Below are positions 1,795 through 55,157 of a stretch of DNA of 64,000 nucleotides, in pieces. The translations under genes were made by a program, and so were the position numbers. Numbering within the stretch: the stretch's first letter is position 1; each line of letters opens with the position of its first letter. The DNA is taken from NCBI GenBank assembly GCA_937870635.1, contig CALMZP010000109.1:21947-85946 (forward strand). The letters are read 5' to 3'. The DNA comes from an uncultured Acidobacteriota bacterium (GTDB lineage Bacteria; Acidobacteriota; Thermoanaerobaculia; Gp7-AA8). The notes beneath the pieces are model-generated. The model had not been told where the DNA came from. It made no database searches and saw only the letters and a program-made list of their open reading frames with translations.

Positions 1795-1853
1795 ATTTTG
1801 GATTTTTTGGATTTTGAGTCAATCCAAAATCCAAAATCCAAAATCCAAAATGG
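1795..1853. repeat. GGATTTT heptad inverted-repeat element 1
   Basis: ttttggattttttggattttgagtcaatccaaaatccaaaatccaaaatccaaaatgg; 7-nt period, arms complementary. Confidence 0.9.
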
Positions 1854-1857
1854 AAAC

Positions 1858-4356
1858 TCACCGCTTCGCGATGCGGAAGCGCGCGACTTCGTTCTCGAAC
1901 CCCTGTCCGCTCTGGACGAGGTTCTGCACGGTCTCGCTGAAGTCGCGCGCGATCTGGTCGTTCTGCTGTGCAATGGACAGCATGGTCCTCGACGCGTCGG
2001 CGATGCGGTCGGTCTCCTGCAGCTGGCGCTCGAGCAGGTCGCGCATGGAGCGTGACTCAGCGGCCATCCGTTCCAGCGCTACGGTGATGCCGCGTCCGGC
2101 CTGCGACTGCTCGGCAGTGGCATTCTTGACCTGTCCGGCGATGTCGCGGATGCGTTCGGATTCCTGTGCGAGCAGCTCCGTGCCGCGCGCCTGTTCGGTC
2201 GTGGCCCGGTTGATCTCGGCGATGTGATCCGACATGCGCGACGTGACGTCGTGCAGGTGGCGGCTCGCTTTGGCCTGCTCTTCGAGGGCCCGGGAGATCT
2301 TCGTCGCCATCTCGTACGATTGATTCGCGCTTGCGACGATCTTCTCGAGCGAGCCCGCGGCGTCATGCGCCAGGGCGACGTTCTCGCGGACGCGCACCAC
2401 TCCCTCGTTGATCTTGGCCACGGCCTGCCGCGAATTGCCCTGGACCGCCTTGACGACCTCGCTGATCTCTTTCGTCGAGCCGCGCGTCCGCTCCGCGAGC
2501 TCGCGGATCTCGTCAGCCACGACGCTGAAGCCGAGGCCGTGTTCGCCGGCTTGCGCGGCGATGATGGCTGCGTTGAGCGCGAGAAGGTTCGTGCGCCCGG
2601 TGATCTCTTCGATGACGTTGAGCATCTGGCCGATGCTCGCGACGCTCTGCTGAAGGTTGTCGATGACCTTCGCCGTGCTGTCGGTGAGCTCCTGCGTCTG
2701 ATTGATCCCTTCGACCGTGCGGCCGACCGCTTCGCCGCCTGCCTCGGCATCCTCGCGGACCTGGCGGGAGATGGCGGCCGTGGCTTCTGCCGTCGCGCTG
2801 AGCTCATCCACCATGGAATCGAGCTGGGAGACGAACGAAAGGACTTCGTCGCTGATGCCGGCGAGCACGCCCGTGCGCTGCGATGTCTCGTTCATCGTGG
2901 CGTGCATCTCGGTGGTCGACGACGACGTCTTCTCCACCGACTGGAACAGGTAATCCATGCTTCGCGCGACCTCTTCGGCCGACGCCTGCAGCTCGAGTGC
3001 GCGGGCCGACGCGTCGTCGGTGAGTGCGCTCGCGTTTTCCGCGGCGCCGAGAACGGAGCGGATCCCTCCCCGAACGTTCTCGACCGAGGATGTGGATCGC
3101 TCGGTCAGCTCGGCCTGGTTGCGCGAACGCTCCAGCAGCGACTCCGTGCCGCCGGTGATGACGCGGACACCTTCGGTGATGGTGGTGCCGCTTCCGCCGA
3201 TGCGTCCCAGAAGGCGGCTCAGGTTCGAGCCCGTCTCGGCAAAGCTCGCGGCAAGCTCGCCGACCTCGTCGTCGGAGAATGCCTGGCGTCCGGTATCGAA
3301 GTTCCCTGCAGCCATCTCGCGCGCCGTAGCGCGCAGGCGGCGCAGCGGCGCGGTCACGTCGCGTGCGAGCAGCAGGGTCGCAATCGAGAAAACGATCGTC
3401 GTCACGAGCGCCACGAGCAGCGTGTAGAAGGCGATCTGCACGGGAATGCTCTGATAGGCCTTCCAGGGAATCGTGAGAACGAGGATCGAGCCGTCCCGGA
3501 CTGGCGCGAACCGGGCCACGTGGTCGCCGACATACGACGAGCTGTCGCCGTTTCCGATGCGGATGATCGCGTCGATCTCACGCCGGTCGAGCGGCTCGCC
3601 GGTATGAATGGCGGTGCCGTCCTTGCGTACGAGGCTGATCGAATGGTCGGAAGGGATGTACGACTTCATCGTGTCGAGCGCTTCGGCGTCCACCTTTGCA
3701 AGGACGTTCGCGTTGCTGTGCAGCCGCTGGAAACGGTCCGCCGACGAGGCGATGGCCAGGTGCTCCAGTTCATCCGAGACCTTCGAGGAGATGAGAAGGC
3801 CGAGCACGAGCATGGAGATGATGAAAGATCCGATGAAGATGACGGCGATCTTCCGGCCGAGGGACAGCTCTTTGCCTGTGTATTGCGCCGGCATCGGCGA
3901 CGGTGCGGTGAACGACACGAGCTGGCGTTTGCCGGCCGCGTAGGCCCACACCACGGACGGGAAGGCGATGATCAGCGCGGCGGCGCTGAAGTAGGCGAAT
4001 CCCGTCTTCGTCGGCAGCAGCAGCCACGTGGCGACCACGGAAAAGATCGCGCCGGCGGCCGCCCAGAAATAGACGGCAACGGTCGTAGCGCGTCGCAGAC
4101 AGTTCGACATCGCGCCGGAGAGCACATCGCTGTCGGTGCCGGCAAGAGCCTTCTCCACCTCTTCGGCAGCCGGTGCGACTGTCCGCATGAATACCGCCAC
4201 GGCCGCCGCTGAAACGGCGATGAGGAGTCCGAGGAGTTTGAGCGAGCCGAGCGGCGAGAGCCGGACGACCTGGGAAACGAAAAGAAAGGAAAGCGGAAGG
4301 TTTCCCGCCGCGGGGGGGATGGTCAGCCAGAGAACGTAGCGGCGAGCGAAATCCAT
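1858..4356 (-). CDS. Methyl-accepting chemotaxis protein (TM regions, HAMP, signalling domain)
   Basis: [25 protein letters not shown] (HAMP) and the MCP hairpin region [46 protein letters not shown]. Start trimmed to MDFARRY. Confidence 0.9.
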
Positions 4357-4462
4357 CGATCGATCTCGATTATCGCACCATCGTCGGTGCGCAACATTAC
4401 AGGCACGATTTCGAAGATCATATGGGATGACGGGGGTGACTCGTGCACGATAGGCTGCCGGC

Positions 4463-4915
4463 GTGAAATTGAGTGTCGTCATTGTCATCATTGGTGTGCT
4501 CGTCGGCCTCGCCGCGGGCCTCGGCGCTTACACGTTCGTCTATGCGAAGGGATATTCGTATCTGACGAACGATCCCGCGGCGTGCGCCAACTGCCACGTG
4601 ATGGACTCGTATTACAGCGGATGGCTGAAAGGTCCGCATCGCGCCGTCGCCGGTTGCAACGACTGCCATACCCCTCACAACTTCATAGGCAAGTACGCGA
4701 CGAAGGCGTCGAACGGGTTCTGGCACTCCTTCTACTTCACCACCGGCGCTTATCCCGACAATCTCGAAATCCGGCCGCGCAACGTCGGCGTCACCGAGGA
4801 CGCGTGCCGGTACTGCCACCAGGCGATCGTGGATGCAATCGCCTCCCATCCCGCACAGATGAAGGGGGGACGGTTCTCGTGCATCCGTTGTCATGACGAT
4901 GTGGGACACATGTGA
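4463..4915 (+). CDS. nrfH: Cytochrome c nitrite reductase small subunit NrfH (tetraheme, membrane anchored)
   Basis: N-terminal TM plus four CxxCH motifs ([23 protein letters not shown]); directly upstream of nrfA. Confidence 0.9.
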
Positions 4916-4919
4916 GGCA

Positions 4920-4987
4920 TTTTGGATTTTGGATTTTAGATTTTGGATTGAAACAAATCCAAAATCCAAAATCCAAAATCCAAAATC
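4920..4987. repeat. GGATTTT heptad inverted-repeat element 2 (nrfH/nrfA intergenic)
   Basis: tttggattttggattttagattttggattgaaacaaatccaaaatccaaaatccaaaatccaaaatc. Confidence 0.92.
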
Positions 4988-5007
4988 GCCCAGGACGAGG
5001 AGAAATC

Positions 5008-6507
<1,500 letters not shown>

Positions 6508-6537
6508 TCGGCTTCACCCCTTCGCTATCATGGCAGC

Positions 6538-7197
6538 ATGCCCGCGATAGAGGAGCGAGAGCGCCGGAGATTCGGCCGGATCGATCTCGAGCAGCCCCTC
6601 GAGGGGGTGATCGGCGCGATTCCGGTGAACGTAGTCGAAGTGTCGATCGTTGGCCTTCGGGTCATGCACGAAGTTCGTTTTCCTCCCGGCGAAGACGGCG
6701 ACGTGCACGTCTCCTGGCAGGGAAAGGACATGCACTTCCGCTGTCGCATCGTCCGGTCGACGCTTTTCAAGCTTGCGAAGACAGCGGCCGACAAGAGCAT
6801 CTATCAATCAGGCATCCGTCTCGACGAAGCCTTCGGCGAGTCGGAGAAGCTCCTGCGCGACCTGATCGCCCAGCGAGTCATGCGCGCCATCCACGAGCAG
6901 AAAGAGAACGCGTACGGCATTACCTCGATGGGTCCTTTCACCTACCAGGTCGGAAAGGGTGATCGATATCGGCGCTGCGAACTGACGGACGGCAAGTGGC
7001 GGAAGTTCGACACGACGCGTCCCGAACAGCCGACCGAAGGCTTTACGGTGTCGGCCGAGCTCGATCCGCCGCAGATCGAGACACTCTGCAGGACCTACGA
7101 GGCCCTCGCATCGGAAGGCCGGCGGCTGACGAAGATGCTCGCTGAACTGAGCATCCGGAAGACCGAGGGTGGTCCGACCCGGCGGTACATCCCGTGA
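6538..7197 (+). CDS. PilZ-like domain protein
   Basis: RERRRFGRIDLEQPLEGVIGAIPVNVVEVSIVGLRV pattern with N-terminal basic residues. Confidence 0.65.
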   Translation: MPAIEERERRRFGRIDLEQPLEGVIGAIPVNVVEVSIVGLRVMHEVRFPPGEDGDVHVSWQGKDMHFRCRIVRSTLFKLAKTAADKSIYQSGIRLDEAFGESEKLLRDLIAQRVMRAIHEQKENAYGITSMGPFTYQVGKGDRYRRCELTDGKWRKFDTTRPEQPTEGFTVSAELDPPQIETLCRTYEALASEGRRLTKMLAELSIRKTEGGPTRRYIP

Positions 7198-7200
7198 GTG

Positions 7201-7267
7201 TTTTTGGATGTTGGATTTGGGATTTTGGATTACCGGCAATCCAAAATCGAAAATCCAAAATCCAAAA
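7201..7267. repeat. GGATTTT heptad inverted-repeat element 3
   Basis: tttttggatgttggatttgggattttggattaccggcaatccaaaatcgaaaatccaaaatccaaaagg. Confidence 0.88.
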
Positions 7268-7287
7268 GGGCTATTCTTCCTCCGATC

Positions 7288-9825: not shown

Positions 9826-9835
9826 GGAGGACCCG

Positions 9836-10327
9836 ATGCGAAAGGCGTTGCTCCGCGGTCGAGTTTGGCTCCTGGTGCTTTGCGTTGCTTCGTTGATGCT
9901 GGCCGGTTGCGGGCATATCCGCAGAGTGGGCGACCCCCCGCGCGGATGCGGCGGCAGCGGCTCGAGCGATAAGGCTTTTCCCTTCATCTGTATCGATGAC
10001 AGCACCCTGACGCCACATCCGGACGTCGCCTATGTATGGGATCGTCAACCGCAGCGAAATGGCGAGCCCTCGGACAATCCGGTGGTGATCAAGTGGATGA
10101 CCACGAGCGGCGGCGGAAATCTCGGAATCGAGTTCACGGACAAAGGTTGCCTCGAGCCGAATTCGCTGCGCTGCAACGGGCACGGGTTCTGTTTCGCGCT
10201 GACGAGAAAACTGGAAAAGGGTCAGGTTTCCTGCTCCTACACGATCAATCTCGAGGGCAGGGAGCGCGACCCGGAGGTCGTTGTCCAGCCCTGCTGCATG
10301 GCCGCCGACGTCATCGATAACCCGTAA
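9836..10327 (+). CDS. Hypothetical lipoprotein
   Basis: Lipobox LMLAGC after hydrophobic N-terminus; gaggagg upstream of ATG. Confidence 0.65.
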   Translation: MRKALLRGRVWLLVLCVASLMLAGCGHIRRVGDPPRGCGGSGSSDKAFPFICIDDSTLTPHPDVAYVWDRQPQRNGEPSDNPVVIKWMTTSGGGNLGIEFTDKGCLEPNSLRCNGHGFCFALTRKLEKGQVSCSYTINLEGRERDPEVVVQPCCMAADVIDNP

Positions 10328-10410
10328 TCACGATCCGTCACCGGGAACGGTAGCCACTGTCATGGCGAAACTCCTTCGCGCGACCCATGGTCGGCGGAGG
10401 AGGACCCGTC

Positions 10411-10863
10411 ATGCGTCTCCGGTTGTCGTTCGTCGTTCTGCTCGCGTTGCTCATTCCCCTGGCGTCCGTTGCCAAGGATGCCTTCCCGAAAGCCTGCGTC
10501 GATTGCCATGTGAAGAGTGGCTCGGCGGACATGCGGCTCAGCACTCTCGCGAAAGCCTGGGCCGTGAAAGCCCCCGCCGCTCTGACGGCCAGAGTCTCGA
10601 CGGTGATGCCGCAAGGCGCGGCGCTCAAGGGCAAGCATCCGCCGATCAGCCCAGCGGTGCTCAAAGAGGTTCCGGCGAGCTGCAGGAAGTGCCACACGGC
10701 AACGTCGAAGACAATTCCGCCGCTCGCCCCGATGATTCATGCGATTCATTTCGGCGGAGACAAGAACGACTTCGTGTCGAAGCACGGCGCCGAATGCACC
10801 CACTGCCACAAAGTGGACGCGAAGAAGGGCCAGATGGCGGTCCCCACCGGCGCTGAGAAGTAG
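10411..10863 (+). CDS. Exported small multiheme c-type cytochrome (three CxxCH)
   Basis: Signal peptide MRLRLSFVVLLALLIPLASVAK; CVDCH, CRKCH, CTHCH; RBS ggaggagga before ATG 10411. Confidence 0.8.
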   Translation: MRLRLSFVVLLALLIPLASVAKDAFPKACVDCHVKSGSADMRLSTLAKAWAVKAPAALTARVSTVMPQGAALKGKHPPISPAVLKEVPASCRKCHTATSKTIPPLAPMIHAIHFGGDKNDFVSKHGAECTHCHKVDAKKGQMAVPTGAEK

Positions 10864-10873
10864 ATCAACCGAA

Positions 10874-10915
10874 ATGTTGAACGTTGAATTGAATGTTCAA
10901 TTCAATGTTGAACGA
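10874..10915. repeat. GTTGAAC-type heptad inverted repeat
   Basis: atgttgaacgttgaattgaatgttcaattcaatgttgaacga; TTGAATTGAA-TG-TTCAATTCAA core just 3' of the cytochrome gene. Confidence 0.7.
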
Positions 10916-11911: not shown

Positions 11912-11928
11912 CTACAGGAGAGAGAGCC

Positions 11929-12916: not shown

Positions 12917-12947
12917 CGCCGGCTCGAGCAGCCGGCGTCTTCGTTTT
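12917..12947 (+). terminator. Intrinsic terminator after the SPFH gene
   Basis: CGCCGGCT-CGAGC-AGCCGGCG followed by tcttcgtttt. Confidence 0.75.
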
Positions 12948-13048
12948 CACGTCATCCTGAGCCGGCGTCAGCGCGGCGAAGGACCTCAGGATGCGAAAGC
13001 CGGGCATTTTGAGGTCCTTCGTCGTCTTCGCGACTCAGGATGACGTGA
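12948..13048. repeat. REP-like element, copy 1 (CACGTCATCCTGAG...CTCAGGATGACGTG)
   Basis: Outer IR CACGTCATCCTGAG/CTCAGGATGACGTG; inner IR GAAGGACCTCA/TGAGGTCCTTC. Confidence 0.85.
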
Positions 13049-13180
13049 GCACGATAGTCGCGCCTTCAGAAGTTCCGGATGCGGGTATTACCGAGTGTCG
13101 TCGATCACGCGCCACTCGGAGTCGATATCACACCGCCCTGTGCGCAGATCGCATATAACACCGCAAGGAGAGAACCCGAA

Positions 13181-20459: not shown

Positions 20460-20524
20460 CCGATTTTGGATTTTCGATTTTGGATTTTGGATTGAGCCCA
20501 AAATCCAAAATCCAAAATCGAAAG
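20460..20524. repeat. GGATTTT heptad inverted-repeat element 4 (purL/purF intergenic)
   Basis: cgattttggattttcgattttggattttggattgagcccaaaatccaaaatccaaaatcgaaag. Confidence 0.92.
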
Positions 20525-20529: not shown

Positions 20530-22830
20530 CTAATGCGCCAATACTTCCGGTGCCTCTTCTCCCACACCCCGGATGACATCGTCGATGGTGTCGCCGCCGA
20601 GGAGGAGGCTGAAGGACGATCGCCAGATCCGGGAGAGCTCCGGGGTCGTCGTTCGGACGAGCGGCACGCCGTTTCTCTCGATGAGGAACACTCCGGCGCC
20701 GGTGTGGCCGATCCTGATCGCGGGCACACCCGCATCCTTCGCGCGCTGAAGCACGTCGTCCGGTGAGTTGCTCGTGACGACCGCGCGCGCCTGCGATTCA
20801 GAATAGAGCAGCGCGATCGCGTCGAGATCGTCCGCATGCCCTTTGAGATCGACGTGACAGCCGATGCCGTCCATCGAGCATTCGGCCAGCGCCACGGCCA
20901 ATCCACCATTGGAGAGATCATGCGCCGACCGGAGGAGATGGTTCTCGTGCAGCGCAAGCAACAGGCTGATCAGCTTGCGCTCGCGTTCGAGATCGACGAG
21001 CGGCGGCGCCGCCAGCGCATCCGGCATGTTCTGCTGCTGCCATTCCGATCCGCCCAACTCGTCGAAGGTCGCGCCGAGGAGAATGATGTCGAGCTTCTCG
21101 TCGGTGAAGGCGAGGGGCGCACCGTGGTGCTCATCCTCGAGAATCCCGACCATGCCGACGGTCGGAGTCGGGTAGATCGCCTTCCCTTCCGTCTCGTTGT
21201 AGAACGAGACGTTGCCCGATACAACCGGAGTATCGAGTGCCATGCACGCGTCGCTGATGCCGCGGATGCATTCCGCGAACTGCCACATGATCTCAGGGCG
21301 TTCGGGAGAGCCAAAGTTGAGGCAGTCGGTGATCGCCGCCGGCCGGCCGCCGCTCGCCGCAATGTTTCGCGCCGCCTCGGCCACGGCCTGTTTCCCACCC
21401 TCGTACGGATCGAGATAGCAGTAAACGGGGTTGACGTCCGATGTCATCGCCAGCGCACGGCCGGTGCCCTTCACGCGGACGATCGCCGCGTCGCGATCTT
21501 CCGGCGCCGCAATCGTGTTCGTGCGCACGGTGGTGTCGTACTGCTCCCAGATCCAGTGTTTCGAGCAGAGATTCGGCGATGCGACGAGCCGCAACAGGGA
21601 GGCGGTCATCTCGGCGTCGGCGACACGATCGCGCTCGAGCTTCAGCGCGATGCGGTCCGCATACGCCGGGCGCTGCATCGGCCGGTTGTACACAGGAGCC
21701 TCGGTCGAAATCGGCTCGACGGGGATCTTCGCGATCTCATCGCCATGCCAGAAGAGACGCACGAATCCATCGTCGGTGACTTCGCCGATGACGGCCGCGT
21801 TGAGGTCCCACTTGCTGAAGATGCGAACGACGTCTTCCTCTCGCCCGCGCTTCGCCACGATCAGCATCCGCTCCTGCGATTCGGACAGCATGATCTCGTA
21901 CGGCGTCATGCCGCTCTCGCGCATCGGCACGCGGTCGAGATGCATGCGGATGCCGGTGCCCGCGCGGCCGGCCATCTCGAACGACGACGACGTGAGCCCG
22001 GCGGCACCCATGTCCTGGATGCCGACGACCGCATCGGTATCCATGATCTCGAGACACGCTTCGAGCAGGAGTTTCTCGGTGAACGGATCGCCGACCTGCA
22101 CGGTGGGTCGCTTTTCCTCCGATGCCTCGTCGAACTCCGCCGAGGCCATCGTCGCGCCGTGGATGCCGTCGCGTCCTGTCTTCGATCCGACGTAGATGAC
22201 CGGATTGCCGACGCCGCTCGCCGTTCCCTTGAAGATCTTTTCCTTCCTCGTGACACCGAGCGCGAAGGCGTTGACGAGGATGTTGCCGTTGTAGCCGCGG
22301 TGGAATGACGTTTCGCCGCCCACGGTGGGGATGCCCATGCAGTTGCCGTAGCCACCGATGCCGCGTACGACTCCGTCGACCAGGTATTTCATGCGAGGGG
22401 CATCGAGCTCGCCGAAGCGAAGCGAGTCCATACAGGCGATCGGACGCGCGCCCATCGTGAAAATGTCGCGGAGAATCCCTCCGACGCCCGTCGCGGCGCC
22501 CTGGTAAGGCTCGATGTAGGAGGGATGGTTGTGCGACTCCATCTTGAATGCGGCGACCCAGCCGTCGCCGATGTCGATCACCCCGGCGTTCTCTCCCGGA
22601 CCCTGCACGACGATCGGTCCCTTGGTCGGAAAGGTCTTGAGGTGAATGCGGCTCGACTTGTACGAGCAGTGCTCCGACCACATCACCGAGAAGATGCCGA
22701 GCTCGGTGTAGTTCGGAGCACGGCCGAGGATCTGTTCGATCAGTTTGTATTCACTCTCGTTGATGCCGTGCGACTGGACGAGGGTGGGGGTGACGGCGGG
22801 TTCCTGCATGGAGGCGGATTCTAAAGACAT
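20530..22830 (-). CDS. purL: Phosphoribosylformylglycinamidine synthase subunit PurL
   Basis: [83 protein letters not shown]. Confidence 0.95.
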
Positions 22831-22837: not shown

Positions 22838-22951
22838 TTTGAGGGTCACGTCTGCACTTCGCACTTTCTCCACGAACGGTAGATAGAGTAGATAGGAAAG
22901 GCCCATCTACCGTTCGTGGAGAAAGTGCGAAGTGCAGACGTGACCCTCAAA
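22838..22951. repeat. Perfect 47-bp inverted repeat with 20-nt loop between tsaE and purL
   Basis: Left arm 22838-22884, loop 22885-22904, right arm 22905-22951; arms are exact reverse complements. Confidence 0.97.
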
Positions 22952-24893: not shown

Positions 24894-24968
24894 ATTTTGG
24901 ATTTTGGATTTTGGATTTGGCTTTTCCGGTCGGGCCCAATCCAAAATCCAAAATCCAAAATCCAAAAT
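24894..24968. repeat. GGATTTT heptad inverted-repeat element 5
   Basis: attttggattttggattttggatttgg...gcccaatccaaaatccaaaatccaaaatccaaaatt. Confidence 0.92.
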
Positions 24969-24974: not shown

Positions 24975-25616
24975 TCACTCATCCGCCCACCCACTCTTGC
25001 GCAAATCCTCTTCCGTATCGATGTCCGCCCGCTCCGGCAGGGTGGCCACCGTGCTGCCCCAGGCGGCGATCCTGGCCATCGTCGCGGCGAAGACCGTGTC
25101 CGTTCCCCATGCGATGTCGCTGAAGATCGACGTGTCGAAAGCCGCGGCGCGGCATCCGATGAGGTAATAGCCGCCATCGGTCGCCGGACCGACGACCCAG
25201 TCGCATGAGTCGAGGATTGCGAAGGCGTGATCGACGATCTCGCGCGAGAGCAGGGGATCGTCGACGCCAATTGCGATGATCTTCTCTGTGCGATGAAAGA
25301 AAAACCGTTCCGAGAAAGCCATCGCCAGGCGGTCGCCGAGGGTGCCGCCGGTCTGCATGGCGAGGGTGTGCGTGCCGAATGCGTCCCGCAGGGCCGCGCC
25401 ATTCGCAATCGGCGTCGGAGCCCAGAGAACCTCGACTTCCGTCTCGTTGGTCGACGTTCCGATCGAGGCCAGCAGGTCGCGCAGCATCGCGCGATAGATC
25501 GTCAGCGCGCTTGAATCGCCGAGCGTGGCGGCCAGGCGCGTCTTCACCGCGCCGGGTTCCGGCAGCCGCGCAAAGATGAGGAGCCGTTGCGGCGCCGGAG
25601 GAACCGTCGGTTGCAT
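24975..25616 (-). CDS. DUF2064 / TIGR04282-type glycosyltransferase-like protein
   Basis: RLLIFARLPEPGAVKTRLAATLG, IGVDDPLLS, VVGPATDGGYYLIG. Confidence 0.82.
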   Translation of the reverse strand: MQPTVPPAPQRLLIFARLPEPGAVKTRLAATLGDSSALTIYRAMLRDLLASIGTSTNETEVEVLWAPTPIANGAALRDAFGTHTLAMQTGGTLGDRLAMAFSERFFFHRTEKIIAIGVDDPLLSREIVDHAFAILDSCDWVVGPATDGGYYLIGCRAAAFDTSIFSDIAWGTDTVFAATMARIAAWGSTVATLPERADIDTEEDLRKSGWADE

Positions 25617-26801: not shown

Positions 26802-26859
26802 TGGGAGTTCTTCGACGCGTTCGCGTGTATTGGCTTGGCTGCTGACTTCGACCCGATCT

Positions 26860-26959
26860 GGACCTTGGACCTTGGACCTTGCGCCACGAAATTTAGTCCC
26901 TCGGTTTTCACACCACGCCGTACGGGTACCTCTCCCAAGGTCCAAGGTCCCAAGTCCCA
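26860..26959. repeat. GACCTTG heptad inverted-repeat element 1
   Basis: gaccttggaccttggaccttg ... ccaaggtccaaggtcccaagtccc with a loop of about 55-60 nt. Confidence 0.82.
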
Positions 26960-28594
26960 TCACCGCCTCCACCTCTGCGCGATGGGCATCTGTCTTCCGC
27001 TGCCGAACGCCTTCGTGGAGACTCGAATCGTTGGCGCGGCCTGGCGGCGTTTGAACTCGTTGTTGTCGACGAGGCTGAGGACACGCTGGACGAGCTTCCG
27101 ATCGAACCCGGCGGCAACGATCTGATCCAGCTCTTTCCACTTCTCGATGTACAGCTTGAGGATCTCGTCGAGGACTTCGTACGGCGGCAGGGAATCCTGA
27201 TCGGTCTGATTGGGACGGAGCTCGGCGGATGGCGGCTTGGTCATCGTCGACTCAGGGATGACATCGCCGTTCCGGTTCAGCCAGCGTGCGATGCGATAGA
27301 TCATCGTCTTGTAGACGTCGCCGAGCAGAGCCAGTCCCCCGGCCATGTCGCCATAGAGGGTGCAGTAGCCGACCGCCATCTCCGATTTGTTACCGGTTGA
27401 CAGCACCATCGCGCCTTTGCGATTTGACCACGCCATGAGGATGTTCCCGCGGATGCGGGCCTGGATGTTCTCGTTGGTCGTATCGAATTTCTTTTCCTGG
27501 AACAACTCGTCGATCGCGGCCTCGTAGGGTTCGTAAACCGGCTGGATGGGGACGATGTGAAAGGCGATGCCGAGGTGCTCGGCGAGTGTGCGGGCATCGT
27601 CGATGGAGTGCTGCGATGAGAACTGCGAGGGCATGGCGATGCCGGTCACATGCTGCGGGCCGAGCGCTTCGACAGCCAGCGCGGCGGTGACCGCGGAGTC
27701 GATGCCGCCAGAGAGGCCGATGACGACGTCCTTGAATCCGCACTTTTTCAGGTAGTCGCGAAGTCCGAGGAGCAGCGCCCGGCCGATTTCTTCTTCGACG
27801 GGCATCGCCTCGAGCGAATTGCAGCGGGCGCCGTCGAGCCGCACCAGTGTGCTCTCCTCGACGAACGGCTGCGCGCAGAAGATCGTCTCGCCCTTCGCAT
27901 CGATGACGATCGACGAGCCGTCGAAGAGCAGCTCGTCGTTTCCGCCCACCTGGTTCACGTAGACGAGCGGAACGTCGTAGCGCCGCGCGATCTCGGAGAA
28001 GAGCTGATAGCGCGCCCCGTTCTTTCCTGCGTTGTATGGCGAGGCCGAGATGTTGAGGATCACTTCGGCATGCTGCCGGGCGAGCTGGTCGACCGGATTC
28101 TGGCAGTACAGCTTGGTGCCGAGAACTTCGTCGTCGTACCAGAAGTCTTCGCAGATGGAGACCCCGACGCGATGGCCGTTGATGTCGACGACCTTGCCGC
28201 CTTTGCCCGGCTCGAAGTAGCGGAGCTCGTCGAAGACGTCGTACGTCGGCAGCAGCGATTTGTGCTGCTCGAGAAGGACTCGGCCGTTCCGGGCAACGAT
28301 CGCGGCATTGTGCAGCGGCTTGCCGCACCATCGCTCGCTGCGCGTGATGCATCCGAAGATGAGCGCCGTCGATCCGGTCGAGGCCGCCAGCTTGTCGCGC
28401 ATCTCCAGGGCCGCCGAGATGAAGGCTTCACGGTCGAGAAGGTCCAGCGGCGGATAGCCGGTCACCGCCAGTTCCGGAACCATGACCACGTCCGCGCCTG
28501 CTTCCGCACCCTCGTGATAGACGCGGTCGATGGTCGCCGCGTTCGACGCCAGGGCTCCCACAGTGGGATTGATCTGTCCGATGTAGATCTTCAT
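26960..28594 (-). CDS. nadE: Glutamine-dependent NAD+ synthetase
   Basis: Nitrilase-type domain (MVPELAVTGYPPLDLL) plus GLSGGIDSAVTAALAVEALG. Confidence 0.94.
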   Translation of the reverse strand: MKIYIGQINPTVGALASNAATIDRVYHEGAEAGADVVMVPELAVTGYPPLDLLDREAFISAALEMRDKLAASTGSTALIFGCITRSERWCGKPLHNAAIVARNGRVLLEQHKSLLPTYDVFDELRYFEPGKGGKVVDINGHRVGVSICEDFWYDDEVLGTKLYCQNPVDQLARQHAEVILNISASPYNAGKNGARYQLFSEIARRYDVPLVYVNQVGGNDELLFDGSSIVIDAKGETIFCAQPFVEESTLVRLDGARCNSLEAMPVEEEIGRALLLGLRDYLKKCGFKDVVIGLSGGIDSAVTAALAVEALGPQHVTGIAMPSQFSSQHSIDDARTLAEHLGIAFHIVPIQPVYEPYEAAIDELFQEKKFDTTNENIQARIRGNILMAWSNRKGAMVLSTGNKSEMAVGYCTLYGDMAGGLALLGDVYKTMIYRIARWLNRNGDVIPESTMTKPPSAELRPNQTDQDSLPPYEVLDEILKLYIEKWKELDQIVAAGFDRKLVQRVLSLVDNNEFKRRQAAPTIRVSTKAFGSGRQMPIAQRWRR

Positions 28595-28627
28595 GACATC
28601 CAGTGGTTCCACTCTACCGAAAAAGGC

Positions 28628-28711
28628 AACCACAGAGGACACAGAGTTCACAGAGAATCACAGAGAACTTCTCCTCTTTGTATCGCTGTGAACTCTGTGT
28701 CCTCCGTGGTT
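28628..28711. repeat. CACAGAG/CTCTGTG hairpin repeat, copy 2 (26-bp arms, one mismatch)
   Basis: AACCACAGAGGACACAGAGTTCACAG ... CTGTGAACTCTGTGTCCTCCGTGGTT between divergent nadE and a DUF1573 gene. Confidence 0.9.
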
Positions 28712-29594: not shown

Positions 29595-30857
29595 GTGACC
29601 CGCCTCGTTTCGATCCTCCTCTTATCCGTGGCCATCCCTGTGTTCGGACAGGTGGCGACCGGCCCGCTCACGATCGAGCGCGCGGTCGAGCTTGCGCTGG
29701 CGCGGAACGAGCGTGCCGCGGCTGCTGAGACGACCGTCGAAGCGGCGGACGCTCGGCTCCGCAGAGCCCGCACCGCATTCTTTCCGCGGCTCGACGTCAA
29801 TGCGTCGTGGCGCAACGACACGTCCCGCGATACGCGCAATACACTCGGCACGGTCGCCACGCTCTCCCAGCCGCTGTTCGACGCGCGCGCGTTTCCGCTG
29901 ATCCGTTTCGCGCGCCTCGAGCGCAGCTCGATCCGACTCTTCGCCGACGAAGACAAACGCCTCCTCGGCTACGACGCTGCTGACGCGTTTCTCGTGGCGC
30001 TCAGCCTGGAGCAGGTTCTCGCTGCGGCTGAGCATCGCCGCGAATTCGCCCGTGCCAGCCTCGAGGACGCGCGGGCGCGTTTCGAGGCCGGCCTCGTCAG
30101 CTCGAACGACGTGACGAGGGCCGAGCTCGAGATGGCGACAGCAGTCCGCGGCGTCGCCGAGGCGAGCGGCAATGTCGAGAGTGCGAGGATCCAGCTGGCG
30201 ACGTTGCTCAACACCGAGGTCGACGGACCGCTCCAGGTTCCGGAGAAAGTGCTCGCCGCCGCGGCCTCGCCTTCGGGCGTCAGCGAGACCGCGATTGCGG
30301 AAGCACAAGGGCGTCGGAACGACGTAGCCGCGTCGCGGTTGCACGTCGAGGCGCTTCGGGCGTTTGCAGAGGAGCCGTCCCGGCGGTTCATCCCGCGGGC
30401 GGACCTGACCGCTCAGACGAGCAATATCAATGAGGGGTCGATCTCCGACCGGAACAACGATGCACTGGTAGGAGTTACGCTCAACTGGCCGGTTTTTGAC
30501 GCGGGTCTCAGGCGGGCGGAAACCGCGGAACGGACAGCCGTGGCTCGCGGCGCACAGCTCGAGCATCAGCTCGGGCTTCGGAACGTCGAGCAGGAGATCC
30601 GCACCGCGGGCGTCCGGGTGGAGAGCGAACAGGCCGCGCTCCGGGAAGCAACGGCGGCGCTGCGCGCCGCGCGCAAGAATGCTCATGAGACAAACGAGCT
30701 GTATCGACAGGGACTGGCCAGTGCCCTCGAGCTTGCGGACGCCAACCAGCGTCTCTTCGAGGCTGAGGTGGCGGAAGTGACCGCGCGATATCGGATGGCG
30801 CAGGCTTATCTCGCGTTGAGGGAGGCCAGCGGATTGGGACCGCTGGCTGGAGAATGA
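29595..30857 (+). CDS. TolC-family outer membrane efflux protein (cluster 1)
   Basis: LTIERAVELALARNERA...ARTAFFPRLDVNASW; GTG start. Confidence 0.88.
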   Translation: MTRLVSILLLSVAIPVFGQVATGPLTIERAVELALARNERAAAAETTVEAADARLRRARTAFFPRLDVNASWRNDTSRDTRNTLGTVATLSQPLFDARAFPLIRFARLERSSIRLFADEDKRLLGYDAADAFLVALSLEQVLAAAEHRREFARASLEDARARFEAGLVSSNDVTRAELEMATAVRGVAEASGNVESARIQLATLLNTEVDGPLQVPEKVLAAAASPSGVSETAIAEAQGRRNDVAASRLHVEALRAFAEEPSRRFIPRADLTAQTSNINEGSISDRNNDALVGVTLNWPVFDAGLRRAETAERTAVARGAQLEHQLGLRNVEQEIRTAGVRVESEQAALREATAALRAARKNAHETNELYRQGLASALELADANQRLFEAEVAEVTARYRMAQAYLALREASGLGPLAGE

Positions 30858-30870
30858 ATGCAACAGATCA

Positions 30871-30969
30871 AGGCAGAAGGCAGAAGGCAGAAGGCAGAAG
30901 AATGAAGCGCAAACGAGTTTCCGGTCTCGGCACATGGCTTCTGCCTTCTGTCTTCTGCCTTCTGCCTTT
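30871..30969. repeat. AGAAGGC heptad inverted-repeat element; right arm is coding
   Basis: aggcagaaggcagaaggcagaaggcagaag (30871-30900) and cttctgccttctgtcttctgccttctgcc (from 30938). Confidence 0.9.
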
Positions 30970-36481: not shown

Positions 36482-36566
36482 GTTTTGGACCTTGGATCCT
36501 GGACCCTGGATCTCAGACAACCGAGGTTTCGAAACTCTCCCAAGGTCCAGGGTCCAGGGTCCAGGT
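36482..36566. repeat. GACCTTG heptad inverted-repeat element 2
   Basis: ttttggaccttggatcctggaccctggatct ... ctcccaaggtccagggtccagggtccagg. Confidence 0.85.
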
Positions 36567-36569: not shown

Positions 36570-37277
36570 TCAGCGATCGCCCCTGAAGGATTCGACGGCT
36601 TTGTTGAATTGATCGGGCTGCTCCATGTTCGACAGATGAGCGGCGCCGCGAATCGTCACCAGCGTCGCCTTCGGCGCCAGGGCGGCCATCCGCTGTGCGT
36701 CGGCGGGAGGAGTGATCGTGTCGGCGTCGCCGACGACGATGAGCGCCGGCACGGCGATGTTGCGCAGCGTGTCCGTCGAGTCGGGGCGCTCGGCCATCGC
36801 CTTCAGAGCCGCCGTGACGCCGGAGAGGGAACTGGACATCATGATCTGGCGCGCCTCGGTCACGAGCGCGGGCGGAGCCTGGGCCGTGAGCATCTTCGGC
36901 AGCATGGCGTCGACCACGACGGAGACACCCTTCGCCTTCACGTTTTCGATCGTCTCGTAGCGCCCTTTCCTGGCTTCCGCGGTATCCGGCGTCTCACGCG
37001 TGTCGATGAGGATCAGGCCCTTCATGCGCTCCGGGGCGATCCGGGCGATGGCGAAGCAGATGTAGCCGCCCATGGAGAGACCGGCCAGAAAAGCCTTGTC
37101 GATCTTCCGCGCATCCATCGCGGCGAGAACGTGCCGGGCGTAGTCATCCATCGTCATCTGGTCCGGCGGCGCGGCGGCCGTTCCGAAGCCGGGGAGGTCG
37201 GGAGCGAATCCGGGAAGCACGTTCTGCTTCGAGAAAACGCGCGACGACAGTGGGAAGCCGTGGATCCAGACGATCAT
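36570..37277 (-). CDS. Alpha/beta hydrolase
   Basis: MIVWIHGFPLSSRVF, nucleophile elbow GLSMGGY, VVGDADTITPP, GAAHLSNMEQP. Confidence 0.87.
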   Translation of the reverse strand: MIVWIHGFPLSSRVFSKQNVLPGFAPDLPGFGTAAAPPDQMTMDDYARHVLAAMDARKIDKAFLAGLSMGGYICFAIARIAPERMKGLILIDTRETPDTAEARKGRYETIENVKAKGVSVVVDAMLPKMLTAQAPPALVTEARQIMMSSSLSGVTAALKAMAERPDSTDTLRNIAVPALIVVGDADTITPPADAQRMAALAPKATLVTIRGAAHLSNMEQPDQFNKAVESFRGDR

Positions 37278-39170: not shown

Positions 39171-39188
39171 ACGACGCACTCGCGGCGG

Positions 39189-39216
39189 TTGACGGTTAAC
39201 GGTTAACGATTAACGG
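39189..39216. repeat. GTTAACG heptad direct array
   Basis: ttgacggttaacggttaacgattaacgg immediately upstream of the SSS gene. Confidence 0.85.
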
Positions 39217-39237: not shown

Positions 39238-40716
39238 TTGCACGCGATCGATCTCGCCATCATCGTCGCCTACCTCGTCGCCGTCGTCGGCGCGGGGTTC
39301 TACTTTGGCCGCCGCCAGCTCTCCACCCAGCGCTACTTCGTCGGGGGACGCGAAGTTCCGTGGTGGGCGATCTCCGCGTCGATCGTGGCGACGGAGACCT
39401 CGACCGTCACGTTCATCTCCGTGCCAGGCATCGCCTTCGCGGCCGGCGGCGACTTCCGGTTCATCCAGATCGTATTCGGCTATCTGGTAGCGCGCATCGT
39501 GATCTCGGTGCTCTTCATGCCGCGCTACTTCCGGCGGGAGCTCGTCACCGTCTATCAGCTGCTGCAGGACCGGTTCGGCGGCGCGGTGAAATCGCTCGCG
39601 GCTTCGCTCTTCGTCGTGATGCGGACCATCGCCGACGGCGTGCGCCTTCTGCTCACCGCCTTCGTGCTCGCGGCCGTGTTCAAGAGCCTCGACCTCGCCG
39701 ACAGCGCGGTCAGCGGGTCGATCATCGCCATCGGTGTCGTCATGATCATCTTCACGCTGATCGGTGGCATCGAGGCCATCGTGTGGATCGAAGTCGTTCA
39801 GCTGCTGATCTACATCGGAGGCGCGATCGCCGCGGCGGTCATCCTCGCCGGACAGATTCCGGGCGGCATCCCCTCGGCCGTCGATCTCGGCCAGATGTTC
39901 GACAAGTTTCGATTTCTCGATTTTTCGTTCGACATGACGAAGACCTACACGTTCTGGTCGGGAGTCATCGGCGGCGCGTTCCTGACGATGAGCACGCACG
40001 GCACCGATCAGTACATGGTGCAGCGCTACCTCTGTACCGATCGTCCGCGCAAGGCTTCCCTGGCACTGCTCGTCTCCGGCGTCGTCGTTCTCGCGCAGTT
40101 CCTCGGATTCCTCTTCATCGGCGTGCTTCTGTTTGCGTTCTATCGTCCCGACCGGATGGCCGGATACGGCCCGACGTCGGGCGCGGCGCCGTTCGCCGCC
40201 GCCGATCAGGTCTTCCCCGACTTCATCACGAACCACCTGCCGATCGGGCTCTCCGGGCTGGTCGTCGCGGCGATCTTCGCCGCGGCAATGTCGTCATCGC
40301 TCAATTCGATCGCGGCGACGGTGGTGTCCGATCTCTACACGCCGCTGCGGCCGGGACGCCCCGATCGCCATTACCTCAACGTCTCCAAACTGGTGACGGT
40401 CATTGCCGGCATCGTCCAGATTGCGGTCGGCGTGGCCATGCAGCATTCGGCGAAGTCGGCCCTGGCGATCGTCCTGTCCATCGCCTCCCTCATCAACGGC
40501 CCCATCCTCGGCGTCTTCCTCCTGGGATGGCTGCGGTCCTCCGCTACGCGCACCGCTGCATTCACTGGGATGCTCACCGGCCTCGCCGTGATTCTCTACG
40601 TGGCGTTCGCAACGAAGATCGCCTGGCCGTGGTACACGCTCATCGGGAGCGCAACGACGTTCCTCGTCGGCTCACTCGTCAGCGCTTTCGGAGCAAGAAC
40701 GAATGAAACGCCTTGA
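39238..40716 (+). CDS. Sodium:solute symporter (SSS) family
   Basis: LAIIVAYLVAVVGAGFYFGRRQLSTQRYFVGGREVPWWAIS...STHGTDQYMVQRYL; TTG start. Confidence 0.9.
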   Translation: MHAIDLAIIVAYLVAVVGAGFYFGRRQLSTQRYFVGGREVPWWAISASIVATETSTVTFISVPGIAFAAGGDFRFIQIVFGYLVARIVISVLFMPRYFRRELVTVYQLLQDRFGGAVKSLAASLFVVMRTIADGVRLLLTAFVLAAVFKSLDLADSAVSGSIIAIGVVMIIFTLIGGIEAIVWIEVVQLLIYIGGAIAAAVILAGQIPGGIPSAVDLGQMFDKFRFLDFSFDMTKTYTFWSGVIGGAFLTMSTHGTDQYMVQRYLCTDRPRKASLALLVSGVVVLAQFLGFLFIGVLLFAFYRPDRMAGYGPTSGAAPFAAADQVFPDFITNHLPIGLSGLVVAAIFAAAMSSSLNSIAATVVSDLYTPLRPGRPDRHYLNVSKLVTVIAGIVQIAVGVAMQHSAKSALAIVLSIASLINGPILGVFLLGWLRSSATRTAAFTGMLTGLAVILYVAFATKIAWPWYTLIGSATTFLVGSLVSAFGARTNETP

Positions 40717-42499
40717 CTTCATCCTTCATCCTTCATCCTTCATCCTTTTTCTGTTCCTTCTCTCCTGCGCCTCCACCGCGCCGAAACCTCGCATGCTGAA
40801 ACTCGAAGACCTCACGCTCGAAGAAAAGATCGGCCAGATGTTTGCCGGCGCCGGTCACGCTCTGTTCACGAATGAATCGGGCTGGCGCTACCGCGACCTG
40901 ATGCATCAGGTCCGCGACAACAAGGTGGGAGGGCTGACCTGGTTCGTCTCGAACGTGCGCGAGACGGCTTTCCTCACCAAGCAACTCCAGAACGCCGCGC
41001 GGGTGCCGCTGCTCATCAGCGCCGACCTCGAGGCCGGTATCGGCATGCGCCTCATCGACACCACGTACTGGCCGACGGCGATGGCGGTCGCCGCCACCGG
41101 CGAGCCGAAGTTCGCCGAGGAGCTGGGGAGGATCACGGCGAGGGAGGCGAAGGTGCTGGGGATCAACCACATCTTCGCGCCTGTCGCCGACGTGAACGTC
41201 AATCCCGACAATCCGGTCATCAACGCGCGCAGCTACGGTGAAGATCCGCGGGAGGTCTCGAAGTTCGTCGCCGCGTTCATTCGCGGTGTGCAGGGCGAAG
41301 GAGTCCTGGCGACGGCGAAGCATTTTCCCGGACACGGCGACACGCACGTCGATTCCCATCGGTCGCTTCCGGTGCTCGACGTCGATCGCGCGCGGCTCGA
41401 CCGGGTGGAGCTGATTCCTTTTCGCGCCGCGATCGAAGCCGATGTTGCCTCCGTGATGATCGGTCACCTCGCGGTTCCCGCAATCGATCCGACGCCGGCC
41501 GGCACGCGGTCGGTCGCTGAGTCGGTTCACGAGAACCCCTATGCCACGCCGGAAGGGGAGCTGACGCGGAACGGTGCTGTGCCGGCCACACTCTCGAAGA
41601 TCATCATCGAAGACCTGCTGCGCGGTGAACTCGGGTTCAAAGGGCTCGTGGTCAGCGACGCATTCGACATGGGCGGCCTCGTCGCTCACTACGAAGCCGG
41701 TGAAGCGGCCGTTCTGGGCATCCTGGCCGGGGAAGACCAGATCCTGAAGTCGCCGAACATCGACCGCGCCATCGAAGCGGTGAAGGAAGCCGTGCAGAGC
41801 GGGCGGATCCCTGAGTCCCGGATCGACGAGTCGGTGCGGAGAATTCTCGACGCGAAGAGCCGCGTGTCATTCGCGGTCGGCACGCAGGAAGAAGTCTTCC
41901 GGGTCCTCGACTCGCAGCAGCATCGCGACAAGTCCGACGAGATCGCGACGCGCGCGCTCACGCTCCTGCGCGAGGAACCGGGTCTCATGCCTCTCGGCAA
42001 GGGAAAGGGTGTGGTGATCCTCACCGTCAGCGACTTCGATGAGGTCGGCAATCCGCTTCCCGCATTCGCGCGCGAGGTGAATCGACGGCTCGAGAACGTC
42101 GCACCCGTGTTCCTCCTCGACTCGCGGTCGCAGGCGGACGAGATCGTCCCCTTCCTCCACGCCGCGCGAAACGCGGAAGTGGTCCTCCTGGCACTGGCAG
42201 TGCGGGCGCGGTCGGGAGCCGGCCACATGGCGCTGCCGCAGGTCGCGCTCGACGCGATCGCGCAGCTGCCCCCGCGGGTGAAAGTGGCCGGCATCTCGTT
42301 CGGGAGTCCCTACGTGCTCCGCCACCTCCCCGCGCTGCAGACGTACTTCGCGGCATACGGCATCCAGCCGGTGATGCAGCAGGCCTCCGTGCGCGCGTTG
42401 TTCGGCGAGACGGCCGTCACCGGCCGTCTGCCGGTCACGATCCCCGGCATGCACGCCCGCGGTGAGGGGATCCAGAAGGCGTTGACCGTTAACCGTTAA
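40703..42499 (+). CDS. nagZ: NagZ-like beta-N-acetylhexosaminidase (GH3) lipoprotein
   Basis: Lipobox FLLSCA; LEEKIGQMF, ATAKHFPGHGDTHVDSHRSLPVL (KHFPGHGxTxxDSH), VVSDAFDMG. Confidence 0.9.
   Translation: MKRLDFILHPSSFILFLFLLSCASTAPKPRMLKLEDLTLEEKIGQMFAGAGHALFTNESGWRYRDLMHQVRDNKVGGLTWFVSNVRETAFLTKQLQNAARVPLLISADLEAGIGMRLIDTTYWPTAMAVAATGEPKFAEELGRITAREAKVLGINHIFAPVADVNVNPDNPVINARSYGEDPREVSKFVAAFIRGVQGEGVLATAKHFPGHGDTHVDSHRSLPVLDVDRARLDRVELIPFRAAIEADVASVMIGHLAVPAIDPTPAGTRSVAESVHENPYATPEGELTRNGAVPATLSKIIIEDLLRGELGFKGLVVSDAFDMGGLVAHYEAGEAAVLGILAGEDQILKSPNIDRAIEAVKEAVQSGRIPESRIDESVRRILDAKSRVSFAVGTQEEVFRVLDSQQHRDKSDEIATRALTLLREEPGLMPLGKGKGVVILTVSDFDEVGNPLPAFAREVNRRLENVAPVFLLDSRSQADEIVPFLHAARNAEVVLLALAVRARSGAGHMALPQVALDAIAQLPPRVKVAGISFGSPYVLRHLPALQTYFAAYGIQPVMQQASVRALFGETAVTGRLPVTIPGMHARGEGIQKALTVNR
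40718..40750. repeat. TTCATCC heptad direct array (4 units), coding in the nagZ signal peptide
   Basis: ttcatccttcatccttcatccttcatccttttt starting 2 nt after the SSS stop codon. Confidence 0.9.
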
Positions 42500-42502
42500 C
42501 CG
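42482..42502. repeat. GTTAACC heptad array at the 3' end of nagZ
   Basis: ttgaccgttaaccgttaaccg, encoding the ...LTVNR* terminus. Confidence 0.8.
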
Positions 42503-42508
42503 CTGACT

Positions 42509-42600
42509 GGTGGAGCGCGGGCGACCTCGCCCGCGACGGACATGAGGGCGGGTCAGATCGCCCGCCCTCCAACGATCTTTGTGCCCGCCGGGGTCGCTCC
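42509..42600. repeat. REP-like element related to 871-962
   Basis: ggtggagcgcgggcgacctcgcccgcg...gagggcgggtcagatcgcccgccctcc. Confidence 0.55.
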
Positions 42601-46076: not shown

Positions 46077-46097
46077 ATGTTCAGTTCAAGCTGTCAG

Positions 46098-46132
46098 GAA
46101 AGCGCCGGTCGTTCGACCGGCGCTTTCTTTTT
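46098..46132 (+). terminator. Intrinsic terminator of the TonB receptor gene
   Basis: GAAAGCGCCGGTC-GTTC-GACCGGCGCTTTC then TTTTT. Confidence 0.93.
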
Positions 46133-46138
46133 AACCCC

Positions 46139-48820: not shown

Positions 48821-48991
48821 TGGCAGGTCCTCCTCGGTTGCAGATTTTATGTGAACATAGCATGAAAGGCGTGGTTATTTCTGGGATTTCAATGTTGTAG
48901 CAGCAAATCATGATGCTGCAATGACTTCCGTCGCCAAATGCGACCTGCCACGATTGGTCGCTTCCGGCGGTGACTGCGATACATTGCCAGC

Positions 48992-51340: not shown

Positions 51341-51348
51341 GTGAAAAT

Positions 51349-51380
51349 CCTTCTCCCCCACTCTTCGGTGGGGGAGAAGG
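51349..51380. terminator. Perfect 13-bp hairpin between convergent genes
   Basis: CCTTCTCCCCCAC-TCTTCG-GTGGGGGAGAAGG; no clear T-run, so hairpin or repeat rather than a proven terminator. Confidence 0.6.
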
Positions 51381-51391
51381 GAGAAACTGCC

Positions 51392-51898
51392 CTATGCCGC
51401 CGCTTTGCTCGCGTCGGTGATGTTGAACTGCTGCTGATTGACCTTCTCGTCGCCGATCCAGACCTCGGCGCGATAGTCGCCCTTGGCCCACGAGGCCGTG
51501 CTGGGTGACGAGAACGACAGGTACTTCTGTCCGGAGACTACCGGCTTGTTTTCCTCGCCGATCTTGGTCTCGTTCGGGCCGTACCACACGACCTTGACCT
51601 GCGAGTTCGGCGGGGCGTCGCCGACTTCCATCGTCAGGTAAACGGTCTGTCCAGGCGCGAAATCGTCGCCCGTCTTGCCGGCGACCATCGAGCCATCCGG
51701 AGCGAGCTCGCTGCCGATGGTGACGTCGTCAATCCATGACTGGGCCGTGGTCGGAGCGATGTCCGAGGGGCTCGAAGTTCCAGCCTGTTCCGTGGTCACA
51801 GTGGAGGCGGGTGGTTCTGCGGTTTCATCGCGGCCACACGCCGCGAGCGCCATCGAAAGCGCCAGGATGAGGATCAGTAGTCCGAGTTTCTTATTCAT
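51392..51898 (-). CDS. Hypothetical lipoprotein
   Basis: MNKKLGLLILILALSMALAACGRDE lipobox; Ig-like beta C-terminal region. Confidence 0.7.
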   Translation of the reverse strand: MNKKLGLLILILALSMALAACGRDETAEPPASTVTTEQAGTSSPSDIAPTTAQSWIDDVTIGSELAPDGSMVAGKTGDDFAPGQTVYLTMEVGDAPPNSQVKVVWYGPNETKIGEENKPVVSGQKYLSFSSPSTASWAKGDYRAEVWIGDEKVNQQQFNITDASKAAA

Positions 51899-51951
51899 GT
51901 GTGACTCCTTTACGGGAGTGGCACACAGCAGAAGACGTGCCGGACTCGACC

Positions 51952-54684: not shown

Positions 54685-54716
54685 GGGAGCAATCTACCCC
54701 CTGCCGCCCTCCCTTG

Positions 54717-54974
54717 CCACCCGTGACGCCGCCCACCCCGCCGCCGTGACGCCACCCGCCCTTTCCACCCGTGACGCCTTTCACCCGCCCGCCCGTGACG
54801 CCACCCTCCCAGCCACCGTGACGGAGGACGGGTGGGGAGCTGACTCGGCCACACGGCGGTCAGGGGGCAGCGGCGTTACGGGCGGAAGGGCGGAGGCGTC
54901 ACGGGGGAAGGGGCGGCCGGCGTCACGGTGGGTCGGGTGGGCGGCGTCACGGTAGGGCGGGTGGGAGGCGTCAC
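54717..54974. repeat. Palindromic cluster of ~24-bp repeats (5 x GTGACGCC-type, then 5 x GGCGTCAC-type)
   Basis: GTGACGCC or variant at 54723, 54746, 54771, 54795, 54818; GGCGTCAC or variant at 54872, 54895, 54919, 54943, 54967. Confidence 0.88.
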
Positions 54975-54985
54975 GCGTTCGTGAC

Positions 54986-55014
54986 TGGACAATTCGATCC
55001 AGTGACCCTATATT
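54986..55014 (+). promoter_or_regulatory. Predicted sigma70-type promoter of the tetR-RND operon
   Basis: TGGACA - 17 nt - TATATT. Confidence 0.65.
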
Positions 55015-55020
55015 CGCCGC

Positions 55021-55038
55021 ACTGACCGCGCGGTCAGT
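55021..55038. promoter_or_regulatory. Predicted TetR operator, perfect 18-bp palindrome
   Basis: ACTGACCGCGCGGTCAGT directly downstream of the -10 and upstream of tetR. Confidence 0.75.
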
Positions 55039-55056
55039 GTGTTGGACAACACCACG

Positions 55057-55157
55057 CCACCAAGCCACCAAGCCACCAAGCACCAAGCACCAAGCACCAA
55101 GCACCAAGCACCAAGCACCAAGCACCAAGCACCAAGCACCAAGCACCAAGCACCAGG
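55057..55157 (+). repeat. CACCAAG direct array (3 x 8-mer CCACCAAG, 10 x 7-mer CACCAAG, 1 variant) in the tetR leader
   Basis: Counted directly: 8-mers 55057-55080, perfect 7-mers 55081-55150, CACCAGG 55151-55157. Confidence 0.97.

What the first reader, a model, noticed from the sequence alone, without database searches (positions are those of the whole stretch)
1795..55157. Family of intergenic heptanucleotide arrays, mostly folded as inverted repeats, with a different 7-nt word at different loci
Seen: GGATTTT/AATCCAA arms at 1795, 4920, 7201, 20460 and 24894; GACCTTG/CAAGGTC at 26860 and 36482; AGAAGGC/GCCTTCT at 30871; CACCAAG at 55081; TTCATCC at 40718; GTTAACG at 39189 and 42482; short GTTGAAC at 10874 and GCACTTC inside the 22838 hairpin. 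The shared property is the 7-nt period, not the sequence, which suggests one mechanism acting on different words rather than one mobile element. Known comparison: heptanucleotide STRR sequences of heterocystous cyanobacteria. The inverted-arm arrangement and several words within 55 kb make this set look distinct. The mechanism (slippage, hairpin-templated repair, dedicated enzyme) is unknown.
Basis: partly seen in the sequence, partly recalled or inferred. Interest (0 to 1): 0.85.

Follow-up and report, generated by a model that had tools for sequence, protein, structure and literature searches.

The report
Heptamer-armed hairpins between bacterial genes
This bacterium carries well over a hundred small DNA hairpins, most wedged tightly between genes, whose two arms are stacks of the same 7-letter word, and where the arms differ in G the G-richer one comes first in all but a few cases; relatives use other words and distant phyla sometimes the same ones, which makes the cause of 7-letter repeats testable.

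Summary
In 746 kb of the window's genome, 140 of 149 exact tandem arrays (at least 3 copies and 18 bp) have period 7. One word, GGATTTT, makes the commonest hairpin (319 nested pattern hits); about ten other words make the rest. The paired form is not new: Rehm et al. 2015 (PMC4692102) described inverted GGGAATC pairs near stop codons in Xanthomonas. What I add: (1) arm order is fixed. GGATTTT comes first in 46/46 sampled hairpins, with 0 reverse-order matches in the whole genome and in eight genomes of other phyla. Across 46 genome-by-word families the G-richer arm is 5' in 37, 3' in 2. The rule predicted a second word in 149 class genomes (18 hits against 0). (2) GGATTTT arms share one phase, usually 4 units plus 3-5 nt. 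(3) The word is absent from 40 relatives, which use others, yet occurs in at least four other phyla. (4) Hairpins fill tight gene junctions; 79% of facing gene ends are within 16 nt. (5) No reverse transcriptase; Y1 transposase genes are not flanked by arrays. Best reading: REP-like dispersed hairpins, born by fold-back copying of a G-rich heptamer array (inferred), adjusted by 7-nt slippage.

The parts
1795..1851 (.). GGATTTT hairpin, left arm degenerate (units of 7 and 9), right arm 4.4 perfect AATCCAA units; 6 nt from the stop of the gene 1858-4356 (-)
4919..4987 (.). GGATTTT hairpin, arms 31 and 33 nt; 3 nt after the stop of 4463-4915 (+), 20 nt before the ATG of the cytochrome c552 gene 5008-6507 (+)
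7202..7267 (.). GGATTTT hairpin with variant units; 4 nt after the stop of 6640-7197 (+)
20462..20523 (.). GGATTTT hairpin, a CGATTTT variant unit present in both arms; 6 nt from the stop of the purL-like gene 20530-22809 (-)
24894..24968 (.). GGATTTT hairpin, perfect arms; 6 nt from the stop of the gene ending at 24975 (-)
26859..26957 (.). GGACCTT/AAGGTCC hairpin, loop about 54 nt; 2 nt from the stop of the NAD synthase gene 26960-28633 (-)
30870..30968 (.). AAGGCAG/CTTCTGC hairpin, arms 31 nt, loop 37 nt; 12 nt after the stop of 29595-30857 (+)
36486..36565 (.). mixed GGACCTT/GGATCCT/GGACCCT hairpin; 4 nt from a called gene end at 36570 (-)
39186..39216 (+). single CGGTTAA array, intergenic, about 21 nt before the called start of 39238-40716 (+)
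40717..40747 (+). single CTTCATC array inside the 5' end of a GH3 gene (codons 5-15)
42480..42502 (+). single CGTTAAC array across the stop codon of 40703-42499 (+)
55058..55161 (+). single CACCAAG array, 14.6 copies, C-rich strand sense, just before the called start of 55169-55798 (+)
10874..10914 (.). GTTGAAC/GTTGAAT imperfect palindrome, not a clean array
22838..22951 (.). perfect 47-bp stem with 20-nt loop upstream of the purL-like gene; contains two GCACTT(C/T) units

Best explanation
These are REP-like dispersed hairpin elements whose arms are heptamer arrays. SHOWN: fixed arm order (G-richer arm 5' on both strands wherever a word is skewed, with few exceptions), arms of about 4 units in one phase for the main word, variable loops, placement in tight gene junctions mostly within 16 nt of a stop, word turnover between genera, single-unit copy changes. 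INFERRED: a hairpin is born when a nascent strand that has just copied a G-rich heptamer array folds back and copies itself, leaving G-arm, loop, C-arm; slippage in 7-nt steps then changes the copy number; whole hairpins spread to other junctions by copying (route unknown) and persist because a stem just after a stop codon is tolerated or useful, as E. coli REPs are (ribosome stalling, 3'-end protection).
For: Order: 46/46 sampled; reverse order 0 in the whole own genome against 319 forward hits, 0 against 88 in eight genomes of other phyla, 0 in viral contigs. 46 genome-by-word families: 37 G-first, 2 C-first (sign test p about 3e-9); ordinary intergenic inverted repeats of the same genome only 34 to 22. 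Prediction tested on a second word in 149 class genomes: 18 G-first hits, 0 C-first. Phase and length; same phases in other phyla. Same variant unit in both arms of 5 hairpins against 1.6 expected, p=0.0035, as arm-to-arm copying predicts. 7-nt indel next to the loop among near-identical Microcoleus loci; Oscillochloris pair with kept arms, changed copy number and loop. Shared loops within other genomes, as unit copying predicts. Position: 53 of 67 gene ends within 16 nt (13% expected per base pair, 57% per junction). Stem energies -37 to -49 kcal/mol.
Against: Own loops of at least 10 nt share no 9-mer, so unit copying is not visible in this genome itself. Left and right arm lengths do not correlate, so arm-to-arm copying is at most partial. 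AACGGTT/AACCGTT (1 G-first, 3 C-first) and CGACCTT/AAGGTCG (0 and 2) break the order rule, AACATTC is mixed. No target duplication and no empty-site pair at strain level was found. No function was measured; the stop-codon bias is much weaker when counted per junction.
Confidence: 0.5

Rival explanations
1. Plain replication slippage. DNA polymerase slips preferentially by 7 nt (the Mrazek 2007 proposal), each array grows in place from a chance seed, and inverted partners are incidental.
For: Period 7 dominates whatever the word; single-unit 7-nt indel in Microcoleus; the proposal is reported.
Against: One word at well over a hundred loci with a common phase and order and none in 40 relatives is hard to get from independent seeds; order is one-sided across words.
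Confidence: 0.12
2. REPIN-type elements moved in trans by a Y1 (RAYT) transposase.
For: Inverted arms with variable spacer, intergenic, high copy, near stop codons; three Y1_Tnp hits in the genome.
Against: Nearest arrays are about 1.9 kb (C139) and 4.3 kb (C170) away; the third gene has only a 15-bp array of another word at its 3' end. Arms lack the GTAG/CGTC foot and internal hairpin of REPs.
Confidence: 0.12
3. End addition: an enzyme adds G-rich heptamers to both 3' ends of a double-strand break and the ends are joined, giving G-arm, junction, C-arm.
For: Explains order, fixed outer phase, unrelated loops and absence of target duplication.
Against: No RVT_1 domain in this 98.7% complete genome; loops are shared between copies in other genomes; the same variant unit recurs in both arms; several words would need several templates.
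Confidence: 0.1
4. Pure selection at RNA or DNA level (G-quadruplex, terminator, REP-like stem) keeps any G-first heptamer hairpin that appears; the origin is ordinary mutation.
For: Position next to stop codons; in tandem gaps single arrays nearer the next start have the C-rich strand sense 12 to 0; Rehm et al. saw a four-unit preference and G4 formation in vitro.
Against: Most words lack GGG runs (GGATTTT, GAACGAT, GAATTGA), so a three-tetrad quadruplex is not the common factor; no T-run follows the stem, so not a canonical terminator; selection does not explain the period.
Confidence: 0.16

Closest known systems
GGGAATC heptamer repeats of Xanthomonas and GGGGA(T/C)T of Nostoc (Rehm et al. 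2015, PMC4692102)
   Same: Period 7, intergenic, four-unit preference, inverted pairs 'with convergent orientation' in 70 and 75 cases, G-rich strand sense just after stop codons, few between divergent genes.
   Different: One G3/G4 word per genome was studied there; here about ten words in one genome, most without GGG, with an order rule that holds across words and phyla.
TAACTGA repeats of Beggiatoaceae, Cyanobacteria and Bacteroidetes (MacGregor 2015, PMC4679880)
   Same: Intergenic heptamer arrays, same word in distant phyla, patchy in near relatives.
   Different: Direct arrays just before start codons, one inverted case among 170; here mostly inverted pairs after stop codons.
REP / BIME / REPIN elements
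   Same: Dispersed palindromes, inverted arms with variable spacer, close to stop codons (Liang et al. 2015, cited in PMC12306157).
   Different: No tagged foot, no internal hairpin in the arm, no flanked RAYT gene; arms are tandem heptamers.
STRR sequences of heterocystous cyanobacteria
   Different: Known to me as direct arrays; words and order were not compared here.

Membership tests
Heptamer inverted arrays of the Rehm 2015 type | tandem unit of 7 nt, mostly intergenic | tested here: met
Heptamer inverted arrays of the Rehm 2015 type | inverted pairs with the G-rich arms converging | tested here: met
   exceptions AACCGTT and AAGGTCG
Heptamer inverted arrays of the Rehm 2015 type | G3 or longer tracts able to form quadruplexes | tested here: not met
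   main word GGATTTT and several others have at most GG
REP / REPIN (RAYT-associated) | RAYT gene flanked by the repeats | tested here: not met
REP / REPIN (RAYT-associated) | GTAG or CGTC foot and imperfect palindrome inside each repeat | tested here: not met
   arm and flank listings; an odd-period array cannot be its own reverse complement
REP / REPIN (RAYT-associated) | often located within about 15 nt of stop codons | tested here: met
   53 of 67 gene ends within 16 nt; weaker per junction
MITE | target-site duplication | tested here: inconclusive
   2-nt or longer matches 10 against 4.2 expected, only one of 3 nt among 45
MITE | terminal repeats shared with a transposon in the genome | not tested
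   no full survey of insertion sequences was made
Intrinsic terminators | stem followed by a T-run | tested here: not met
   no T enrichment in the 12 nt after the hairpin
Curated RNA family | match to an Rfam model | tested here: not met
   no Rfam match in the window

The most novel reading that the evidence does not exclude
Heptamer-armed hairpins in many phyla are products of one unrecognised process that makes 7-nt arrays on G-rich nascent strands and folds them back, so that period 7 and G-first order are its signatures; words are only the locally fixed substrate.
Probability: 0.3. Interest if true: 0.85.

Novelty: new variant of a known kind. Interest (0 to 1): 0.58.

Why it matters
Why bacteria favour 7-nt tandem repeats has been open since at least 2007, with one untested proposal (polymerase footprint). 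A directional rule that holds over many words and several phyla is a constraint any mechanism must meet, and it can be tested in sequence data and in replication or reporter assays. It also separates the phenomenon from G-quadruplex formation, the explanation so far offered for the Xanthomonas and Nostoc cases.

Tried and rejected
Reverse transcriptase link: none in the genome. RAYT link: genes present, not flanked. Target duplications and palindromic extension of flanks or loops: no clear signal. Arm-length coupling: none. Rfam: no match in the window. Strain-level empty sites: not obtainable; Microcoleus genomes turned out to hold one conserved hairpin each, and the nearest relatives are other genera whose intergenic DNA does not align. 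Order of the Xanthomonas word in viral contigs: no G-first match and a single C-first locus in two near-identical contigs, with two-unit arms in what looks like an unrelated phage repeat; uninformative but not in favour. Gene starts come from my own simple caller and are approximate; stops of real genes are exact.

Full report
Observation. Eight are inverted pairs, four are single arrays, one (10874) is an imperfect palindrome and one (22838) is a long perfect stem with only two heptamer units. The TTCATCC array at 40717 is coding, at the start of a glycosyl hydrolase family 3 gene. In a 455-kb sample of the same genome, exact arrays of at least three copies number 70 at period 7 and 13 at all other periods from 4 to 15; a first-order shuffle gives none at 7. 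In 746 kb the count is 140 of 149.

Anatomy of the main family. The 20-mer of the GGATTTT word occurs 457 times in the genome, both strands together, and never in 40 relatives, 17 of them of the same family. Of 93 arrays sampled, 84 have an inverted partner within 150 bp and none a direct one. All 46 hairpins of the sample read GGATTTT, loop, AAAATCC; because a hairpin reads the same on both strands, this order is a real property and not a choice of strand. The opposite order does not occur in the genome, against 319 nested hits for the observed order. Arms are most often 31-33 nt, start with (G)ATTTT and end with GGATT; loops are 1-40 nt; flanks and loops are unrelated among loci.

Other words and other genomes. 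The same genome uses GGACCTT, CGACCTT, GGTGCTT, GAACGAT, GAAGGAT, GAATGGT, AAGGCAG and GGTTAAC, among others. Relatives in the family also show a period-7 excess where arrays are common enough to count, but with other words; in nine comparisons of conserved gene junctions with an array, seven had it on one side only and two had different words. The GGATTTT hairpin occurs in Chloroflexi, Hydrogenedentes, an Acidobacteria gp4 genome, Phycisphaerae and Microcoleus, always in the same order (0 reverse against 88 forward matches in eight genomes) and mostly with the same outer phase. In several of these genomes copies share loop sequence (GAGGAC...GTCCTC; GTGTAG; GCAGATG...), as expected if whole hairpins are copied. 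Words shared between distant groups, the ascertained word excluded, number 17 against 2.3 expected, though some are one-step variants of the ascertained word.

The order rule. Counting each word in each genome once, with loops up to 250 nt, the G-richer arm is 5' in 37 of 46 families, 3' in 2, the rest tied or mixed. Ordinary intergenic inverted repeats of the same genome split 34 to 22. As a test on a word chosen beforehand, GTGCTGA hairpins were sought in 149 genomes of the class: 18 G-first hits in five genomes, none C-first. The exceptions are AACCGTT (1 G-first to 3) and AAGGTCG (0 to 2); AACATTC is mixed. Rehm et al. describe their Xanthomonas pairs as convergent, which I read as the same order; I could not verify it in their genomes, and my attempt in viral contigs found only one apparently unrelated C-first locus. 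The genomes compared were not an unselected sample: they were picked by kinship or by carrying the GGATTTT hairpin.

Position. Of 67 gene 3' ends facing a hairpin, 53 lie within 16 nt of it; uniform placement per intergenic base would give 13%, uniform placement per junction 57%. So the main effect is that hairpins occupy tight junctions, with a further, weaker bias to the stop side. All eight paired arrays of the window lie within 12 nt of a stop codon by these gene calls. E. coli REPs that lie within 15 nt of a stop codon stall ribosomes (Liang et al. 2015, as cited in PMC12306157), which makes an effect here plausible but not shown.

Mechanism. Slippage explains copy-number change (a single 7-nt indel in Microcoleus) but not one word at so many loci. 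The one-sided order follows if the second arm is made by a nascent strand folding back after copying the G-rich side. The same variant unit in both arms of 5 hairpins (1.6 expected, p=0.0035) fits arm-to-arm copying; uncorrelated arm lengths show that slippage acts on each arm alone. Dispersal is inferred from phase, order and shared loops elsewhere; its agent is unknown. A reverse transcriptase is absent and Y1 transposase genes are not flanked by the repeats.

Verdict. Confirmed as an observation; a multi-word variant of a known but little-studied kind; the order rule and the word turnover appear new within the papers I could search.

Noticed in passing
12941-13054; also inside loops at G000 C12:4381-4545, C31:27137-27297 and C157:20508-20724 (L161): A second dispersed hairpin family (CGTCATCCTGAGCCGCGAAGACGGCGAAGGATCTC...), also present in relative G008, sometimes enclosed by heptamer arms, giving concentric hairpins.
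   Followed up: partly
28628-28711: Hairpin with arms of ACCACAGAGGACACAGAG-type repeats of about 9 nt.
   Followed up: no
54703-54975: GC-rich tandem arrays of 23-24 nt (CCGTGACGCC...) arranged as an inverted pair, next to the CACCAAG array.
   Followed up: no
870-963 and about 42510-42540: GCGGGCGA(T/C)CTCGCCCGC-type inverted repeats that recur across the genome.
   Followed up: no
L147 (G000 C40), last about 20 bases: Contig end reads AGATCGGAAGAGCGTC, the Illumina adapter, so the assembly is short-read and untrimmed there.
   Followed up: no
L142 (G000 C8), bases 1-77: A contig begins inside an 11-copy AAAATCC array, so longer arrays may break the assembly.
   Followed up: no
L082, L087, L089 (IMG/VR contigs): Contigs catalogued as viral carry GGATTTT arrays and hairpins in the same order; whether they are truly viral was not checked.
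   Followed up: no
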